A DNA stretch of 64,000 bases from the NCBI GenBank assembly GCA_944325215.1, contig CALUZC010000003.1, positions 1 through 64,000 of the forward strand. The letters are read 5' to 3'. Positions 1 to 7,309 of the stretch are shown here, piece after piece. The notes beneath the pieces were generated by a model. The model saw only the letters and a program-made list of their open reading frames with translations, was not told where the DNA came from and made no database searches. Position numbers and translations under genes: made by a program. Source of the DNA: an uncultured Mucispirillum sp. GTDB taxonomy: Bacteria > Chrysiogenota > Deferribacteres > Deferribacterales > Mucispirillaceae. Position 1 is the first letter of the stretch. Every line of letters starts with the position of its first letter.

Positions 1-190
1 TTGGTATTCATAGAGCAGGATATGTAAAAATATAATCATAGAAAACTGAATTTACAGACTTTTTTTCACAGGCTCAAGGTTTTTATTATGTTTCACAGTT
101 TATATATGAATGTTGGTATTCTTATTTTTTAAATAATTGATAAAACTTATAGTGAATATTGGTTTTCATTAGTTACTTTAAAATTAAACA

Positions 191-223
191 AATAAAAAGC
201 CCATTTGATAACCAAATGGGCTT
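191..223 (-). terminator. Terminator of the duplicated potD end
   Basis: An 11-bp perfect stem (197-207 with 213-223) around a 5-nt loop is followed on the minus strand by a T-rich run (196-191). It ends the cassette and the truncated potD copy. The whole hairpin is the exact reverse complement of the one at 3512-3538, so the loop is inverted relative to the intact potD copy. Confidence 0.85.
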
Positions 224-386
224 AAATTATTATAACTTATTGATTAACTTTTAATTTATTCCAGTATTCACTGTATATTGGTAGGGCATCTTCAATATTA
301 AGCTGGAATTCAGAATTTTGTAAATCTTCATTAGTAGGGAAGATAATTCTGCTGTTTTTAGCATTTTCATCTAAATATTTTCCAAC
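197..386 (-). repeat. 190-bp direct repeat, copy 1 (potD 3' end plus terminator)
   Basis: This stretch aligns without gaps to 3512-3701. I count 12 mismatches in 190 positions, three of them in the terminator loop. Similarity stops sharply at 386/3701 on one side and at the hairpin on the other. Repeat-to-repeat distance is 3,315 bp. The layout resembles an element inserted at a gene's 3' end that carries its own copy of that end, or a recombination scar. Confidence 0.9.
237..386 (-). pseudogene. Truncated potD 3' end (last ~49 codons)
   Basis: Read on the minus strand, this keeps the potD frame from VGKYLDENAKN to the same LKVNQ ending and stop codon. Against the intact gene it has five synonymous codon changes and three conservative replacements (D to N, E to D, Q to E). 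This looks like divergence under purifying selection, so the fragment probably came from a functional divergent potD allele rather than decaying here. It has no start and begins 10 nt after the stop codon of the nuclease-like gene, so it is not expected to be translated. Confidence 0.85.
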
Positions 387-396
387 ATTTCTTTTT

Positions 397-1398
397 TTAC
401 ATGCACCAATTATCAAACATATCCAAAATATGCTCTATTTTATTGAAACATTCTTCATATGTTCCAGTAAATATATCATTTTTAATATAAGCAATAGGTG
501 TCCATGTATATATTTTTAACCTGCTTACTCTTTCAATATTAATATTATACTTTTCACAAGTTTTGTATGCAATATCAAGCATTTTATTTATTTCATTTCT
601 ATCTTTTGATTCTGTTTTAATAATCAATAAAATCTTATCTTTTTTATCAAAATAATTTTCTATTTGAAAATACATGTTAGATTTATGATAATTTGCAGGA
701 TAAAACCAAAAACCGAGAAACATTCCACCAGGATTATTTACCTGTTCCCAATTACAAACCACATTATCCATAGATTTTTCTTTTAAGCGAGTATATATCC
801 GTTTTTCTAGTTCTTTATAAAATCCACAGCATGCATCATAACTTTTCTTAATAGATGACAAATCAGTTTTATATGAATTTGTTTTTGCTTCGATATTTTT
901 AAGACGTTCAAAATAATCTATAAATATATCATTTTTTATATGGCTGTGTTTTTCAAAAAGTGATAGTAAATCATTTCTTGATATATATTTGTAGTTTTCT
1001 CTTTCTATAGAATTAACAATATATGTGCTGTCATCTCTTGTTTTAAGAAATACACATACAAGTTCTAAATTATTTTCATTGCAATGGTTTTGTGCTTTTT
1101 CTTTATAATTTGCTAACTGGTTTCCATGCTGGTTTGTTCCAGTTTTATCTTCAATAATTATAAAATATTTTTTATTAACTGTAACAGATATATCTATTTT
1201 TTCCCACTGCCTCCAACAATATACTTGTTCTATATTTAGGTTTTCATTACCAATAATCATTTTAATAAAATCTTTTGCCAAAGTATTTAATTCTTTATGT
1301 TCTATATATTGATTATCAGCATAAGAAATAAGCCACGTTAAAAATGCATCTTGAGCAAGTTCATTTGTGCCTATTTCAAATAAATTTGGTTTATTCAT
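397..1398 (-). CDS. PD-(D/E)XK nuclease superfamily protein
   Basis: A 333-residue soluble protein with no signal peptide. The N-terminus (NLFEIGTNELAQDAF, then TWLISYAD) matches my memory of the PDDEXK_4 group. A nuclease core is visible: D69 in KIDI, then E83-x-K85 in IIIEDKTGT, followed by Q94-L95-xx-Y98. The C-terminal half is unassigned. An AGGAG lies 7 nt before the ATG. It is the second gene of a cassette, 16 nt downstream of the RCC1 lipoprotein, and its stop lies 10 nt before the truncated potD end. Such proteins often occur in accessory or defence regions, but substrate and role are unknown. Confidence 0.75.
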   Translation of the reverse strand: MNKPNLFEIGTNELAQDAFLTWLISYADNQYIEHKELNTLAKDFIKMIIGNENLNIEQVYCWRQWEKIDISVTVNKKYFIIIEDKTGTNQHGNQLANYKEKAQNHCNENNLELVCVFLKTRDDSTYIVNSIERENYKYISRNDLLSLFEKHSHIKNDIFIDYFERLKNIEAKTNSYKTDLSSIKKSYDACCGFYKELEKRIYTRLKEKSMDNVVCNWEQVNNPGGMFLGFWFYPANYHKSNMYFQIENYFDKKDKILLIIKTESKDRNEINKMLDIAYKTCEKYNINIERVSRLKIYTWTPIAYIKNDIFTGTYEECFNKIEHILDMFDNWCM

Positions 1399-1414
1399 AT
1401 TAATTCTCCTAATT

Positions 1415-3142
1415 CTAATTAAATATTATTTTTTCAAAAGTGTACCAACCATAAGTTGTATAAAGTGAGCTACTTTCAGTTAAAATATATGTGCTTGCAT
1501 CTACATATGTGCTAAATATTTGTTCATATACATATATAAATGTCATTACTTTTGTAACCTTACCGTTAATATCAGTTACTTTTGTAGGTGAGTTAATGTT
1601 GTCTTCCCTTCCAATCCCAAGCTGACCACCTTTGTTATTACCCCATGCATAAAGAGAGCCATCTTCCAGTATAGCAAAAATTGATTTATAGGTAGTATAA
1701 TTTTTATCACTATTAATTATTAAATCCATAATCTTGCCATTAATAGCTGTTACTTTTGTAGGTGTGTTTTTATCTTCATTACTTCCAATTCCCAGTTCAC
1801 CATAATAATTCTTACCCCATGCATAAAGAGAGCCATCTTCCAGTATAGCATGAGATGCTGAAGAACTAGTTATCAGCTTTTTAATTTTGCCAGGTAAATT
1901 TACTATGGTAGGAGTATTCTTATTTATTTTATCGCCAACCCCTAGCTGACCACTATAATTCTCACCCCATGAATAAAGAGAACTATCTTCCATTAATGCA
2001 TAAACTGATGAACCATTAGTTATTAGTTCTTTAATTTTGCTAGGTAAATTAACCTTAGTAGGTGTGTTTTTATTTACTTCATCACCAACTCCTAGCTCAC
2101 CACTATAATTCTCACCCCATGAATAAAGAGAACTATCTTCCATTAATGCATAAACTGATGAACCATTAGTAGTTATTAGTTCTTTAATTTTGCTAGGTAA
2201 ATTAACCTTAGTAGGTGTGTTTTTATTTACTTCATCACCAACCCCTAGCTGACCATAACTATTCTTACCCCATACATAAAGTGCACCATCTTCCAGTATA
2301 GCATAAACTGATGAACCAGTAGTTATTAGTTCTTTAATTTTGCTAGGTAAATTAACCTTAGTAGGTGTGTTTTTATTTACTTCATCACCAACTCCTAGCC
2401 GACCACTTTCATTATAACCCCATGCATAAAGAGAACTATCTTCCATTAATGCATAAACTGACGAACCAGTAGTTATTAGTTCTTTAATTTTGCTAGGTAA
2501 ATTAACCTTAGTAGGTGTGTTTTTATTTACTTCATCACCAACTCCTAGCCGACCACTTTCATTATAACCCCATGCATAAAGAGAACTATCTTCCATTAAT
2601 GCATAAACTGACGAACCAGTAGTTATTAGTTCTTTAATTTTGCTAGGTAAATTAACCTTAGTAGGTGTGTTTTTATTTACTTCATCACCAACTCCCAGCT
2701 GACCATAACTATTCTTACCCCATACATAAAGTGCACCATCTTCTGTTATAACATAACACGCTGATTCAGTAGGGTTATCACCTGCACATTTAATCAATTT
2801 TACTTTACCTGGAATATCAACTTTTTTATTATAGGCTACATATTCATCAGTAAGTCCTAATCCTAACTGACCATCTTTATTATTGCCCCAGGCATAAAGT
2901 GAACCATTATCTAAAATTGCATATAGGGAGTCTTGCCATAATCTTAAGGTATTATTCCATGTAGTAAAGTGATAAAACTCTTTTACAGCATTTGGATCAG
3001 GCTTTGGTTCTGGTAAAACTGAACCATCACCTCCATTATTTCCACTGTTATTACTTCCATTATTGCTGTCACTACAAGCAGTTATCATAAAAATTGATAA
3101 AACTGCATAAATTAGTGTTATTATAAGTTTTTTCTTTTGCAT
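1415..3142 (-). CDS. RCC1-repeat surface lipoprotein
   Basis: A 575-residue protein with a lipoprotein signal (MITAC, Cys23), then a Gly/Ser/Asn/Pro-rich linker to about residue 50. The rest is RCC1-type beta-propeller repeats, each with a LYAWGxNxxGQLGxG-like core. The central units are almost identical 50-residue repeats. RCC1 propellers are usually protein-binding; here the protein should be tethered to the envelope. AAGGAGT lies 5 nt before the ATG. It heads a two-gene unit with the nuclease-like gene, and its promoter contains a C9 tract suggesting phase variation. The binding target is not known. Confidence 0.8.
   Translation of the reverse strand: MQKKKLIITLIYAVLSIFMITACSDSNNGSNNSGNNGGDGSVLPEPKPDPNAVKEFYHFTTWNNTLRLWQDSLYAILDNGSLYAWGNNKDGQLGLGLTDEYVAYNKKVDIPGKVKLIKCAGDNPTESACYVITEDGALYVWGKNSYGQLGVGDEVNKNTPTKVNLPSKIKELITTGSSVYALMEDSSLYAWGYNESGRLGVGDEVNKNTPTKVNLPSKIKELITTGSSVYALMEDSSLYAWGYNESGRLGVGDEVNKNTPTKVNLPSKIKELITTGSSVYAILEDGALYVWGKNSYGQLGVGDEVNKNTPTKVNLPSKIKELITTNGSSVYALMEDSSLYSWGENYSGELGVGDEVNKNTPTKVNLPSKIKELITNGSSVYALMEDSSLYSWGENYSGQLGVGDKINKNTPTIVNLPGKIKKLITSSSASHAILEDGSLYAWGKNYYGELGIGSNEDKNTPTKVTAINGKIMDLIINSDKNYTTYKSIFAILEDGSLYAWGNNKGGQLGIGREDNINSPTKVTDINGKVTKVMTFIYVYEQIFSTYVDASTYILTESSSLYTTYGWYTFEKIIFN
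1948..2700. repeat. Intragenic tandem array, five ~150-bp units
   Basis: Units lie at 1948-2097, 2098-2250 (153 bp, one extra codon), 2251-2400, 2401-2550 and 2551-2700. The last two differ only at two positions near their ends, indicating recent duplication. Each unit encodes one 50-residue RCC1 repeat, so copy-number change keeps the reading frame. Further, more diverged RCC1 units flank the array. Confidence 0.9.
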
Positions 3143-3171
3143 ACAATACTCCTTTTGATAAAATTTTTATC

Positions 3172-3198
3172 ATTATATCACGGGGGGGGGAATGTCAA
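3172..3198 (-). promoter_or_regulatory. Promoter with C9 tract in the spacer (candidate phase-variable)
   Basis: On the minus strand there is a consensus -35 TTGACA (3198-3193) and a -10 TATAAT (3177-3172) preceded by TGA, an extended -10. The spacer is 15 bp and contains nine consecutive C residues (plus-strand G tract 3182-3190). Slipped-strand changes in the tract would alter the spacing; two extra C would give the usual optimum of 17. The RCC1 lipoprotein start is 30 nt further on. Confidence 0.75.
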
Positions 3199-3505
3199 GT
3201 TCTATATTACCCATTATAACTTTTGTAACTTTAGAAAAACCTTTTAAAATATCCAGACTTAATTGTTTTTCCAAATAATAAAATATATAATGGTTTTTAA
3301 AAAATACTCTTATTGATTTATTAAGATAATCATAATCATACACTACATAGTTTTTATGAATATAAGCAATACATTTATTAAAATGTTACATTGCTATTAT
3401 GTTTGATATTTTATATATGAGTTTTTGTATTATTGATTTTTTAGTAAATTTAGTAAACTTATACTTATATGTTAGTTATATTTTATTGATCGCCTGAATA
3501 TTGTA
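3199..3505. other. AT-rich gene-free spacer
   Basis: About 300 bp between the cassette promoter and the potD terminator. I see no open frame with a ribosome binding site, no RNA gene and no mobile-element motif. It does not obviously match the sequence left of the other repeat copy (1-190). Confidence 0.5.
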
Positions 3506-3538
3506 TTAAAAAAGCCCATTTGGTTATCAAATGGGCTT
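3506..3538 (-). terminator. potABCD terminator
   Basis: An 11-bp perfect stem (3512-3522 with 3528-3538) with a GTTAT loop, followed on the minus strand by a T run. It lies 14 nt after the potD stop codon and ends the polyamine transporter operon. Confidence 0.88.
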
Positions 3539-3701
3539 AAATTATTATAACTTATTGATTAACTTTTAACTTATTCCAGTACTGGCTGTATATTGGTAGA
3601 GCTTCTTCAATATTAAGCTGGAATTCAGAATTTTGTAAATCTTCATCAGTAGGGAATATTATTCTGCTGTTTTTAGCATTTTCATCTAAATATTTTCCAA
3701 C
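3512..3701 (-). repeat. 190-bp direct repeat, copy 2 (intact potD 3' end)
   Basis: Partner of 197-386; it contains the last ~49 codons of intact potD plus its terminator. Same orientation and no gaps. Confidence 0.9.
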
Positions 3702-4592
3702 TACTTCTTGTTTTAAAGGTGACGCATAACCTACATAGTTAGATATTTTTGCAGAAATTTCTGGGCGTATTATAAAATCAATAAATTTATATGCGTTTTC
3801 TACATTTCTTGCTTTGCTAGGAATAACAAGGCTGTCCACCCAAACTGCTGCACCATCTTTTGGGTATATATATTTAATATCTTTATTTTCTAAAGATGCC
3901 ATATATGCTTCACCGCTCCACATAATACCAATATATACTTCTTCATTTAAAAATGGAGTTCTTGGAGAATCAGAGTTAAATAAAGTAACAGAAGGCATTA
4001 ATTTAACTAATTTATTATATGCTTCTTCTATTTCAGCTTTATTTTTACTATTACCAGAATAACCAAGGGAGCGTAATGCAGTATGGAATACTTCCCTAAC
4101 ATCATTTTGCAGCATTAATTTGCCTTTAAATTCTTCTCTCCATAAATCATCCCATGAAGTAATTGTTGCGGGGTCAATATATTTAGCATTTACTCCAATA
4201 GCTGTAGTTCCCCACATAAAAGGAACACTGTATTTATTTTCAGGGTCATAAGGCTGGTTTACAAGCTTTGGGTTAAGGTTATTGAAGTTTGATAGTTTTG
4301 ATTTATCAATAGCTTGAATTAAACCTTCTTTTTGCATTTTTTCAATATAGTAAGTTGATGGCACAGCAATATCATAATCAGCACCACCTGTAAGTTTGAT
4401 TTTTGAATACATTGCTTCATTACTGTCATATGTAGTATAATGAACTTTGATGCCAGTTTCTGCTTCAAACTGTTTGATAACATCATCAGGAATGTATTCA
4501 GACCAGTTATAAACAAATAATTCGTTTTCGTTTTTTTTAGTGCAGGCAAAAAGTGTAAAAGCTGCCATAAGCACAACAAGAATTTTTTTCAT
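3552..4592 (-). CDS. potD: Spermidine/putrescine-binding lipoprotein PotD
   Basis: The substrate-binding protein of a polyamine ABC importer, 346 residues, the usual family length. It has a short signal peptide with lipobox LFAC (Cys17), so it should be a lipid-anchored periplasmic binding protein. The mature N-terminus (NELFVYNWSEYIPDDVI, then FEAETGIKV) is typical of PotD/PotF. The ATG overlaps the potC stop by 4 nt, indicating coupled translation. Its 3' end is duplicated at 197-386. Whether it prefers spermidine or putrescine cannot be told. Confidence 0.93.
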   Translation of the reverse strand: MKKILVVLMAAFTLFACTKKNENELFVYNWSEYIPDDVIKQFEAETGIKVHYTTYDSNEAMYSKIKLTGGADYDIAVPSTYYIEKMQKEGLIQAIDKSKLSNFNNLNPKLVNQPYDPENKYSVPFMWGTTAIGVNAKYIDPATITSWDDLWREEFKGKLMLQNDVREVFHTALRSLGYSGNSKNKAEIEEAYNKLVKLMPSVTLFNSDSPRTPFLNEEVYIGIMWSGEAYMASLENKDIKYIYPKDGAAVWVDSLVIPSKARNVENAYKFIDFIIRPEISAKISNYVGYASPLKQEVVGKYLDENAKNSRIIFPTDEDLQNSEFQLNIEEALPIYSQYWNKLKVNQ

Positions 4593-5362
4593 CTTTTCCT
4601 CTCTTTTAACATTATTTGTGTAACAATAACAATAAGCATTGATACACCAAATATAATAGTACTTAACGCATTTACTTCTGGTTTTACCCCAGTTCTAACC
4701 ATTGCATATATTTTTTGTGGTAATATTTCAAATCTTGGACCAGATGTGAAAAATGCACATATACTATCATCCATAGAAATAGTAAAGCTTAATATCCACG
4801 CAACAACAACAGCAGGGAAAATAGATGGCAGAATAATATGAAAGAAAGTCTGTAATTCATTTGCACCTAAATCTTTTGCTGCTTCTATAATATGTATATC
4901 AAAATTTGAAAGCCTTGTAAAAAGCACAGCCATTACAAAAGGCAGGCACAGGGTAATATGTGTAATAAGTAAAGTCTGAAACCCTAAACTAAGGCTTAGA
5001 AATTTGAATAATAAAAGTAGAGATATACCCATAATGATTTCTGGTGACATTATTAAGATATAAAGTAAGGATATAATAAAGTTTTTACCAAAAAACTTAA
5101 ATCTAAATAAAGTAACAGCAGAAAGAGTGCCTATTATTGTTACTAATGTAGCAGATGATATACCAATAATAAGTGAATTTATAAGCCCTGAAATTAATGT
5201 GCTTGAATGAAACAGTTTTTCGTACCATCTTAAAGAAAAACCTTTCCATACGGCACCAGTAGGGGCATCATTAAAAGAAAATACTATTAAAACTATTAAC
5301 GGCAGGTATAAAAATACGTATACGAAAAAAATGTAAGACCATTGTAATTTTGATGTTTTCAT
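4589..5362 (-). CDS. potC: Polyamine ABC transporter permease PotC
   Basis: A 257-residue inner-membrane permease with about six hydrophobic segments. It has the EAA loop that contacts the ATPase (EAAKDLGANELQTFFHIILP). It pairs with PotB to form the channel. Its start overlaps the potB stop by one base (TAATG), and it is followed by potD with a 4-nt overlap. Confidence 0.93.
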   Translation of the reverse strand: MKTSKLQWSYIFFVYVFLYLPLIVLIVFSFNDAPTGAVWKGFSLRWYEKLFHSSTLISGLINSLIIGISSATLVTIIGTLSAVTLFRFKFFGKNFIISLLYILIMSPEIIMGISLLLLFKFLSLSLGFQTLLITHITLCLPFVMAVLFTRLSNFDIHIIEAAKDLGANELQTFFHIILPSIFPAVVVAWILSFTISMDDSICAFFTSGPRFEILPQKIYAMVRTGVKPEVNALSTIIFGVSMLIVIVTQIMLKERKR

Positions 5363-6219
5363 TACAGCACCTTTGTTTGAAATGATTTAGAGCTTTTATA
5401 ATATGCCCATATCATTAAACCCATAACAACAGTAATTAAAACACTTGCAGCAGAACCAAGCGGCCAGTTTTGTATAACAGATGTAGTAAACTGTTCTTGT
5501 ATAATATTACTTACCATCATTGTTTTACCACCCCCCAGCAGGCTTGGAATATAGAAAAGCCCTAATGCAGGTAAAAATACAAGGACTACACCTGCAATAA
5601 TCCCCGGCGATGTAAGTGGTAGAATTATATGGTAAAAAGTTTTTAGTTTACTTGCCCCTAAATCTTGAGCAGCTTCAACATATTTGAAATCAAATTTTTC
5701 AATAGTAGCATATAATGGAAGTATCATAAATGGCAGCAGGGTATATACAAACCCAAAAATTACAGCACCTTCAGTGTATAATAGTTTTAATGGAGCATCT
5801 ATTATCCCTATTTTTATAAGAATAGTATTAATAAGCCCATTAGCAGCAAGCATATATGATATTGCATAAGTTCTTATTAAAGCACTTGTCCAGTATGGAA
5901 TAACTACCAAAAGGGCAAGAAGTCCTTTATATTTTGATTTTGAACGTGCCAAAATATAAGCAAAAGGATAGCCGATAATTAAGCATAATGCTGTTGCAAT
6001 AGCTGCTATTTTAAAGGAATTAATAAATATTTTAAAATAATTATCAGAAAAAAATTGTTTATAGTTATCAAGAGTAAATACAGCTTTAACAAATGATGAG
6101 CTGTCATACTCCATAAAACTAACAACAAACATAATAATATTAGGTATTAAAGCAAAAAGTAGTAACCATAAAACAATGATACCTATTGTAACTTTATGAA
6201 AAAGGCTATGCTCTTTCAT
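5362..6219 (-). CDS. potB: Polyamine ABC transporter permease PotB
   Basis: A 285-residue permease with six predicted membrane segments and an EAA motif (EAAQDLGASKLKTFYHIILP). Gene order potA-potB-potC-potD and its greater length relative to PotC support PotB. The start lies 14 nt inside potA, so translation is probably coupled. Confidence 0.93.
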   Translation of the reverse strand: MKEHSLFHKVTIGIIVLWLLLFALIPNIIMFVVSFMEYDSSSFVKAVFTLDNYKQFFSDNYFKIFINSFKIAAIATALCLIIGYPFAYILARSKSKYKGLLALLVVIPYWTSALIRTYAISYMLAANGLINTILIKIGIIDAPLKLLYTEGAVIFGFVYTLLPFMILPLYATIEKFDFKYVEAAQDLGASKLKTFYHIILPLTSPGIIAGVVLVFLPALGLFYIPSLLGGGKTMMVSNIIQEQFTTSVIQNWPLGSAASVLITVVMGLMIWAYYKSSKSFQTKVL

Positions 6220-7309
6220 CTTTTAAGATAACCTCCCAGCCAGAAACCCAGCCAACAGATACTTGTTCATTCATATTATAGTCAAAATCTTCATATTCTT
6301 CGTCAAAAAATTCGCTAGCTTTAATAATAGTGCCGTTATTTAATTTGATTGTAGTATCAAGTGTAGCACCTTTATATATTTTTGTTTCAATATTTCCAAC
6401 CATTAACCCTTCAGTATCTGGGTGTTCACTAAGCTTTTCTATTCTCATATCTTCTGGGCGTAAAAGAAGAGTAAATTTATCACCAATATTAAGTTGTTTT
6501 TTAGTTTTAATGTTGCAGATTCTACCTTCTACTTTTGCTTTTACAAGATTATCTTCAAAACCTAATACTTCACCTTTTAATACATTAACATCACCAATAA
6601 AGCTCGCAACAAATATAGAATTTGGCTCTTCATATAGATTTTTAGGTGTTCCACACTGTTCTATAATGCCCTGATTCATAACAATAACTCTATCAGACAT
6701 AGAAAGTGCTTCTTCTCTATCATGAGTAACTAGAACAAATGTAATGCCAAGTTTTCTTTGCAGCTGCTTTAATTCTTTTTGCATATTAATTCTTAATGAT
6801 GCATCTAAAGCACTAAGTGGTTCATCAAGTAAAAGCACTAATGGTTTGTTTACTAAAGCACGGGCTAGTGCAACACGCTGCTGCTGACCACCTGAAAGCT
6901 GGTGTGGCTTTCTATCAATAAATTCTTCTAATTTAACAATACGCAGCACTTCCATTACTTTATCTTTTATTTCAGTTTTTGGAACTTTATGCATTTTAAG
7001 TCCAAAAGCAATATTATCAAACACGGTCATATGTGGAAAAAGAGCATAATTTTGAAAAACTGTATGAACTTCTCTATTATTTGCAGGAATATTATTTATT
7101 CTTTTGCCATTTAAAATAATATCACCACTATCAGCATGCTCAAACCCTGCAATTAACCTTAATGTAGTTGTTTTTCCACAACCAGATGGACCTAATATGG
7201 TAAGAAATTCACCATTATATATTTTTAAATCAAGATTATTAAGGACAGATTTACCATCAAAACTTTTATTTACCTGTCTAAGTTCAACTAAAACCTCTTG
7301 TTTTTCCAT
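6206..7309 (-). CDS. potA: Polyamine ABC transporter ATPase PotA
   Basis: A 367-residue ATPase that powers polyamine import. It has Walker A GPSGCGKTT (40-48), signature LSGGQQQ, Walker B LLLDEP followed by LSALD, and an H-loop in VTHDREEAL. The C-terminal third is a TOBE-type regulatory domain, as in PotA/CysA/MalK ATPases. It is the first gene of potABCD, with AAGGTGA upstream of the ATG. Confidence 0.94.
   Translation of the reverse strand: MEKQEVLVELRQVNKSFDGKSVLNNLDLKIYNGEFLTILGPSGCGKTTTLRLIAGFEHADSGDIILNGKRINNIPANNREVHTVFQNYALFPHMTVFDNIAFGLKMHKVPKTEIKDKVMEVLRIVKLEEFIDRKPHQLSGGQQQRVALARALVNKPLVLLLDEPLSALDASLRINMQKELKQLQRKLGITFVLVTHDREEALSMSDRVIVMNQGIIEQCGTPKNLYEEPNSIFVASFIGDVNVLKGEVLGFEDNLVKAKVEGRICNIKTKKQLNIGDKFTLLLRPEDMRIEKLSEHPDTEGLMVGNIETKIYKGATLDTTIKLNNGTIIKASEFFDEEYEDFDYNMNEQVSVGWVSGWEVILKDERA

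What the first reader, a model, noticed from the sequence alone, without database searches (positions are those of the whole stretch)
197..3701. Two-gene cassette bracketed by duplicated potD 3' ends
The RCC1 lipoprotein and nuclease-like genes sit between two 190-bp direct repeats (197-386 and 3512-3701), each the potD 3' end plus terminator. One copy belongs to intact potD; the other is a truncated end with mostly synonymous differences. This mirrors islands that insert at a gene's 3' end, but no integrase is present. The divergence suggests import from another potD allele. Recombination between repeats would remove 3,315 bp and keep one full potD.
Basis: partly seen in the sequence, partly recalled or inferred. 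Interest (0 to 1): 0.72.

Follow-up and report, generated by a model that had tools for sequence, protein, structure and literature searches.

The report
Nuclease cassette bracketed by potD tails
In the gut bacterium Mucispirillum, a two-gene cassette (a repeat-rich lipoprotein and a restriction-like nuclease) has moved between species by ordinary homologous recombination, using a spare copy of a neighbouring gene's tail as a landing strip instead of an integrase.

Summary
In this Mucispirillum genome, window 194-386 and 3509-3701 are 94% identical. Weaker homology runs to 84-399 and 3395-3715, covering the potD 3' end, its terminator and about 110 nt beyond. An RCC1-repeat lipoprotein gene and a PD-(D/E)XK nuclease gene lie between.

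A second species (G007) has the same cassette in the same place. Its nuclease gene is 100% identical over 1,002 bp, although the two genomes are only about 80-86% identical at the leuCD locus. Four other species, and sister species G001, have a single potD end, so the empty site exists.

The intact potD's tail came in with the cassette. Most of the truncated copy is the resident potD end: 138 nt across its terminator equal G001's native DNA. The switch from donor-type to resident sequence is a single breakpoint inside the truncated copy (window 289-311; P about 1.5e-5). That is homologous recombination with the truncated copy as right-hand arm.

[quoted passage not shown] Relatives of the pair occupy a second locus, and RCC1 genes sit beside other restriction-like genes at a third. 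How the first junction formed is inferred, not shown.

The parts
3552..4592 (-). potD, intact; its 3' end is the tail that came with the cassette
   Evidence: SBP_bac_8; closest NCBIfam model is PotD, below its cut-off; 3' end 97-98% identical to G007
3395..3715 (-). left copy of the repeat: potD 3' end, terminator and about 110 nt downstream; donor-type allele
3512..3538 (-). potD terminator hairpin (left copy)
3171..3198 (-). putative promoter of the RCC1 gene, TTGACATT-C9-GTGATATAATG
   Evidence: the same sequence stands before 22 mostly secreted or lipoprotein genes in the genus; not tested for function
1415..3142 (-). RCC1-repeat protein, 575 aa, lipoprotein-like signal sequence, 150-bp internal repeats
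   Evidence: PF00415, nine stretches; repeats
397..1398 (-). PD-(D/E)XK nuclease-like protein, 333 aa; candidate catalytic residues D69, E83, K85
   Evidence: PF14281 E 9.6e-10; PADLOC candidate PDC-S26 E 1.2e-9; conserved residues; 100% DNA identity to G007
387..404 (-). right junction: nuclease gene end (GTGCAT) joined to potD-like GTAAAAAAAGAA, which supplies the stop codon
84..386 (-). right, truncated copy: about 75-100 nt donor-type, then resident potD end, terminator and resident downstream DNA
289..311 (-). interval holding the recombination switch inside the truncated copy
   Evidence: 6 of 6 sites G007-like before it, 18 of 18 sites G001-like after it
197..223 (-). resident potD terminator, now downstream of the nuclease gene
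1..77 (.). end of a multi-copy element at the contig edge, next to the truncated copy
   Evidence: identical or near-identical copies at about 16 contig ends

Best explanation
The stretch is an integrase-less mobile cassette (RCC1 lipoprotein plus PD-(D/E)XK nuclease) at the potD 3' end. It entered this lineage by homologous recombination with DNA from a donor that already carried potD, cassette and truncated potD end. One crossover fell in potC/potD. The other fell inside the truncated potD end, pairing with the resident's own potD tail. The incoming tail therefore completes potD, and the resident tail became the truncated copy, with its terminator now downstream of the nuclease gene. Shown here: the duplication, the empty site, recent cross-species sharing, and the mosaic breakpoint. 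Inferred: that DNA entered by transformation or a similar route; that the first junction arose by one-sided homologous plus illegitimate joining, or by single crossover of a circle; and that the nuclease acts in defence.
For: Same cassette in G007 with 100% nuclease identity (1,002 bp) while the two genomes are about 80-86% identical at the leuCD locus. Intact potD tail and its downstream DNA are G007-like (98.0% and 99.2%), whereas DNA beyond the truncated copy is only 66% identical to G007 and 100% identical to G001 over 138 nt. One clean switch inside the truncated copy. Single potD end in G001, G003, G004, G006 and G009. ComEC-family gene present in all four genomes tested, G000 included. 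Tail, cassette and right junction together are shared by G000 and G007.
Against: The resident allele is represented by one sister species only. G001's own pot operon is itself mosaic, and identity of this genome to G007 dips at 4147-4446, so the left crossover is not sharply placed. Direction between G000 and G007 is undetermined; both may have received the cassette from a third lineage. The 190 nt at 3200-3390 have no known source. DNA uptake is not demonstrated in the genus.
Confidence: 0.82

Rival explanations
1. A site-specific integrative element that targets the potD 3' end and restores it with its own copy, having lost its integrase or using one encoded elsewhere.
For: Outward shape: insertion at a gene's 3' end, direct repeats, incoming tail completes the gene.
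Against: No recombinase in the cassette. The repeat is about 300 nt with no short core. The switch to resident sequence lies inside the repeat, and the left exchange reaches far up into potD/potC. The second locus of the nuclease has no potD repeat.
Confidence: 0.06
2. Within-genome tandem duplication of the potD end, followed by insertion of the cassette between the copies and later divergence.
For: Both copies are potD ends in direct orientation.
Against: The copies match different species (left copy G007, right copy G001) rather than differing at random. Relatives have one copy.
Confidence: 0.06
3. Remnant of an ancient tandem potD paralogue.
For: Only that a truncated potD-like end follows an intact potD.
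Against: Five related species have a single potD end at the locus. The only full-length paralogue in this genome is 35% identical and lies elsewhere. The truncated end is 98-100% identical to the sister species' potD end beyond the switch.
Confidence: 0.01
4. Movement by an insertion sequence, of the kind that sits at window 1-77.
For: A multi-copy element end lies next to the truncated copy; IS-linked movement of a restriction system is documented (PMC3031569).
Against: G007 has the cassette with no such element beside it: its truncated copy runs straight into the conserved downstream genes. The repeat is not an insertion-sequence duplication.
Confidence: 0.04

Closest known systems
Insertion with long target duplication (Nobusato et al. 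2000, Helicobacter pylori; described in PMC1643837 and PMC3031569)
   Same: Restriction-type gene inserted in a chromosome between long direct copies of the target, without a recombinase; an empty site in a related genome.
   Different: Here the two copies are different alleles, one incoming and one resident, and a crossover inside one copy is visible. The sharing is between species, and the unit carries an RCC1 lipoprotein gene and a lone nuclease with no methyltransferase.
Minimal mobile element (Neisseria; discussed for example in PMC3082526; definition from my own knowledge)
   Same: Alternative genes in a fixed slot between conserved genes, exchanged by homologous recombination in the flanks. 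The leuCD and rplO-secY slots fit this.
   Different: The potD site carries a duplicated gene end, which lets the cassette enter an empty site using potD homology alone.
Homology-facilitated illegitimate recombination and single-crossover integration (PMC3240628)
   Same: Candidate routes for the first junction: homology at one end, short-homology join at the other. In the E. coli tests the commoner circle route gave partial duplications of 109-950 bp.
   Different: Only the product is seen here; the route is inferred.
Core defence hotspots (Pseudomonas aeruginosa, PMC10250203)
   Same: Defence-type genes at fixed sites between core genes, without an obvious mobile element; transfer by flank recombination was suggested there.
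   Different: Much smaller slots (one to three genes), and here a recombination breakpoint is visible.
Integrative islands at gene 3' ends
   Same: The incoming element completes the 3' end of the target gene; direct repeats at both sides.
   Different: No integrase, no short attachment core, and breakpoints typical of homologous recombination.

Membership tests
Insertion with long target duplication | Direct repeat of target sequence, about 100 bp or longer, on both sides of the insert | tested here: met
   193 nt at 94%, extending to about 320 nt at 84%
Insertion with long target duplication | Empty site with one copy in a related genome | tested here: met
   G001, G003, G004, G006, G009
Insertion with long target duplication | Insert carries restriction-type gene(s) | tested here: met
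   PDDEXK_4 family nuclease-like gene, no methyltransferase; activity untested
Insertion with long target duplication | Duplication made by copying the target itself during insertion | tested here: not met
   In this genome the two copies are different alleles, one incoming and one resident. This counts against that mechanism at this site; for the first event, elsewhere, it cannot be tested.
Integrative island at a gene 3' end | Integrase or other recombinase in the element | tested here: not met
   Two genes only, neither a recombinase
Integrative island at a gene 3' end | Crossover confined to a short attachment core | tested here: not met
   Right switch within 289-311; left exchange reaches up to about 5050
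Minimal mobile element | Different genes in the same slot between the same conserved genes in different genomes | tested here: inconclusive
   Met at the leuCD and rplO-secY slots; at potD only one cargo or none was seen in the genomes held
PD-(D/E)XK nuclease (PDDEXK_4) | Match to the Pfam model above its curated cut-off | tested here: met
   39.1 bits against a cut-off of 22.3
PD-(D/E)XK nuclease (PDDEXK_4) | D...ExK catalytic residues conserved | tested here: met
   D69, E83, K85 invariant in five aligned sequences; the structure model is too weak to add to this
PD-(D/E)XK nuclease (PDDEXK_4) | Nuclease activity | not testable with these tools
   Needs expression and assay

The most novel reading that the evidence does not exclude
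RCC1-repeat lipoproteins and restriction-like genes form a functional unit: a cell-surface propeller protein made with an exchangeable intracellular nuclease (PDDEXK_4, Mrr-type or GmrSD pair), passed between species through gene-tail landing strips. The link is seen at three loci in this genus; the RCC1 protein had no PADLOC match and no such system turned up in the few paper searches made.
Probability: 0.15. Interest if true: 0.7.

Novelty: new member of a known kind. Interest (0 to 1): 0.5.

Why it matters
Defence and restriction genes often sit between long repeats or at fixed core-gene sites with no visible means of moving. Here the two repeat copies are different alleles, so the route can be read from the sequence: the spare gene tail let the cassette enter a resident copy of the gene by homologous recombination, between species that are only about 80-86% identical at another locus, and left the core gene whole. 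The Pseudomonas aeruginosa hotspot paper (PMC10250203) names transfer by flank recombination as a question for future work; this locus is a concrete, testable case.

Tried and rejected
The origin of the 190-nt stretch 3200-3390 (between the left copy and the promoter) was not found in any of ten genomes. A donor with a single potD end plus the cassette was not found among held genomes. Phage records gave no nuclease match and plasmids only distant matches. An assembly artefact was rejected because G007 is an independent assembly with a near-identical junction. The ancient potD paralogue and integrase models were rejected as described under rivals. A length-variable (phase-variable) promoter tract was considered: all 22 sites matched in ten genomes have the same tract length (one reads C8T), so there is no evidence for variation. 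The AlphaFold model of the nuclease was too poor for a fold search (mean pLDDT 46). The PDB profile search gave only marginal matches (E about 0.002) to a flagellar motor switch protein in the C-terminal half, judged chance. Furuta et al. 2010 on mobile restriction systems is not held.

Full report
What is there. The window is the start of contig C3 of a Mucispirillum genome (G000; genus from the titles of the closest records). potD (3552-4592, minus strand) is intact. Downstream lie an RCC1-repeat gene with a lipoprotein-like signal sequence (1415-3142), a PDDEXK_4 nuclease-like gene (397-1398), and then a second, truncated potD end with its own terminator. The repeats 194-386 and 3509-3701 are 94% identical. 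Homology continues at lower identity to 84 and 3395 in intergenic DNA, 84% overall. Five of the 8 codon differences are synonymous.

Related genomes. Ten Mucispirillum species genomes are held. G007 carries the same cassette between potD and a truncated potD end. G003, G004, G006 and G009 have a single potD end followed by the conserved neighbours (an HD-domain-like gene, an HU-like gene and an asd-like gene, named by eye). G001, the sister species (96-97% identical at the leuCD locus), also has a single potD end. Its two contig ends meet in one insertion element inside the terminator, with TAAC on both sides. The empty site is therefore real.

Recent sharing between distant species. G000 and G007 are about 80-86% identical at the leuCD locus, yet their nuclease genes are identical over 1,002 bp, the intact potD ends are about 97-98% identical, and the RCC1 genes are 95% identical, with differences concentrated in the internal repeats. 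Within the truncated copy identity drops to 78%. The pot operon as a whole shows further exchange: G001 and G007 are 88-100% identical across it despite about 82% at leuCD, so this operon recombines between species.

Which copy came in. Three comparisons agree. (a) The DNA beyond the intact potD terminator is 99.2% identical to G007 and only 72% identical to the DNA beyond the truncated copy. (b) Window 75-212, across the truncated copy's terminator and beyond, is 100% identical to G001's native sequence. (c) At the 24 sites in the truncated copy where G007's truncated copy and G001 differ, this genome follows G007 at the first 6 (378 to 312) and G001 at the remaining 18 (288 to 208). There is one switch; the chance of such perfect segregation is 1.5e-5 if sites are treated as independent. 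The simplest reading is that the incoming DNA carried potD tail, cassette and the start of a truncated potD end, and that the right-hand crossover took place between that truncated end and the resident's potD tail. The left crossover lies in potC/potD: identity to G007 rises from 89% to 99% near 5050, with a dip at 4147-4446 that blurs the picture.

The first junction. At 387-404 the nuclease gene ends in GTGCAT followed by GTAAAAAAAGAA, which is potD-like (G003 and G006 potD read CTGTAAAAAAAGAA). The nuclease stop codon is thus supplied by potD-type DNA, and its last residues differ from those of relatives at the other locus. The junction is shared by G000 and G007 apart from a small indel, so it formed once. 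How it formed is inference. One-sided homology with an illegitimate join, or single crossover of a circle bearing a potD end, would both give it. E. coli experiments with one-sided homology gave mostly partial duplications, of 109-950 bp where sequenced, attributed to the circle route (PMC3240628).

Where the cassette's relatives live. The nuclease (86-89% identical in protein) and an RCC1 gene also occur between a conserved 387-aa gene and a ferredoxin-domain gene near leuCD in G002, G008 and G009 (in G002 and G008 the contig ends within the pair). In G005 an Mrr-type gene takes the nuclease's place. In G003 the nuclease is reduced to about 25 codons by an internal deletion. That slot has no RCC1 or nuclease match in G000, G001, G006 and G007. 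A third site, between rplO and secY, holds RCC1 plus a GmrSD-type pair in G000, RCC1 plus a broken PDDEXK_4 gene in G001, and PDDEXK_4 alone in G006. G007 has a GmrSD-like pair there without RCC1, and G009 has one next to secY (rplO is not on the stretch read); the pairs of G007 and G009 were recognised by eye and not scanned. Other RCC1 genes in G000 (contigs C20, C24, C34) have no such partner, so the link is frequent but not fixed.

How it probably works. The cassette has its own putative promoter, TTGACATT-C9-GTGATATAATG, and gains the resident potD terminator at its end, so it is a self-contained unit. A donor fragment with potD sequence on both sides can enter any sufficiently similar potD by ordinary recombination and leaves potD complete. 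A ComEC-family gene in all four genomes tested makes DNA uptake possible but does not prove it, since the family is also found in bacteria not known for uptake. The nuclease is likely a defence-type enzyme by family, not by test. The role of the RCC1 lipoprotein is unknown; a surface protein is my best guess.

Comparison with known kinds. It meets the structural criteria of insertion with long target duplication, described from H. pylori and linked to restriction genes (PMC1643837, PMC3031569). It adds that the two copies can be different alleles, one incoming and one resident. It is not an integrase-dependent island. The other two slots resemble minimal mobile elements and core defence hotspots (PMC10250203).

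Limits. One genome per species is held. The resident allele is represented by one sister species. Direction between G000 and G007, the original donor, and the source of 3200-3390 remain unknown.

Noticed in passing
window 3171-3198; 22 matches in nine of ten Mucispirillum genomes: A promoter-like sequence TTGACATT-C9-(A/G)TGATA(A/T)AATG stands before RCC1 and many other mostly secreted or lipoprotein genes. The tract between the two hexamers is the same length at every site (one reads C8T), so it looks like a shared promoter class rather than proven phase variation.
   Followed up: partly
G000:C39 (L186 6235-12620), G001:C5 (L163 4416-7885), G006 (L182 4958-6464), G007 (L183 902-4883): The rplO-secY gap inside the ribosomal protein cluster holds alternative restriction-like genes: RCC1 plus a GmrSD-type pair, RCC1 plus a broken PDDEXK_4 gene, PDDEXK_4 alone, or a GmrSD-like pair. 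It looks like a small defence hotspot in an unusual place.
   Followed up: partly
L069:3228-4250 (G005), L068:6220-6536 (G003): At the slot near leuCD, an Mrr-type endonuclease gene replaces the PDDEXK_4 gene in G005, and in G003 the same nuclease is reduced to about 25 codons by an internal deletion.
   Followed up: partly
window 3552-7000 (pot operon): G001 and G007 are 88-100% identical across the pot operon but about 82% at leuCD, so the operon itself seems to be exchanged between species.
   Followed up: partly
G001 contigs C7 (start) and C56 (end): An insertion element sits inside the potD terminator hairpin of G001, with TAAC on both sides; its ends read TGAGGCGAACCC / GGGTTCGCCTCA.
   Followed up: partly
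window 1-77: End of a multi-copy element present at about 16 other contig ends of this genome; a 93% identical copy lies just downstream of potD in G009 (L043 7333-7406).
   Followed up: no
window 1729-2722 (RCC1 repeats): Between G000 and G007 the RCC1 gene differs mainly within its 150-bp repeats (88-97% in sliding windows) while its 5' part is 99.5-100% identical, suggesting reshuffling or diversification among the repeats.
   Followed up: no
window 197-223 and 3512-3538: The two terminator hairpins carry the loop in opposite orientation (GATAAC versus GTTATC), and the loop orientation is also opposite between the two copies of G007.
   Followed up: no
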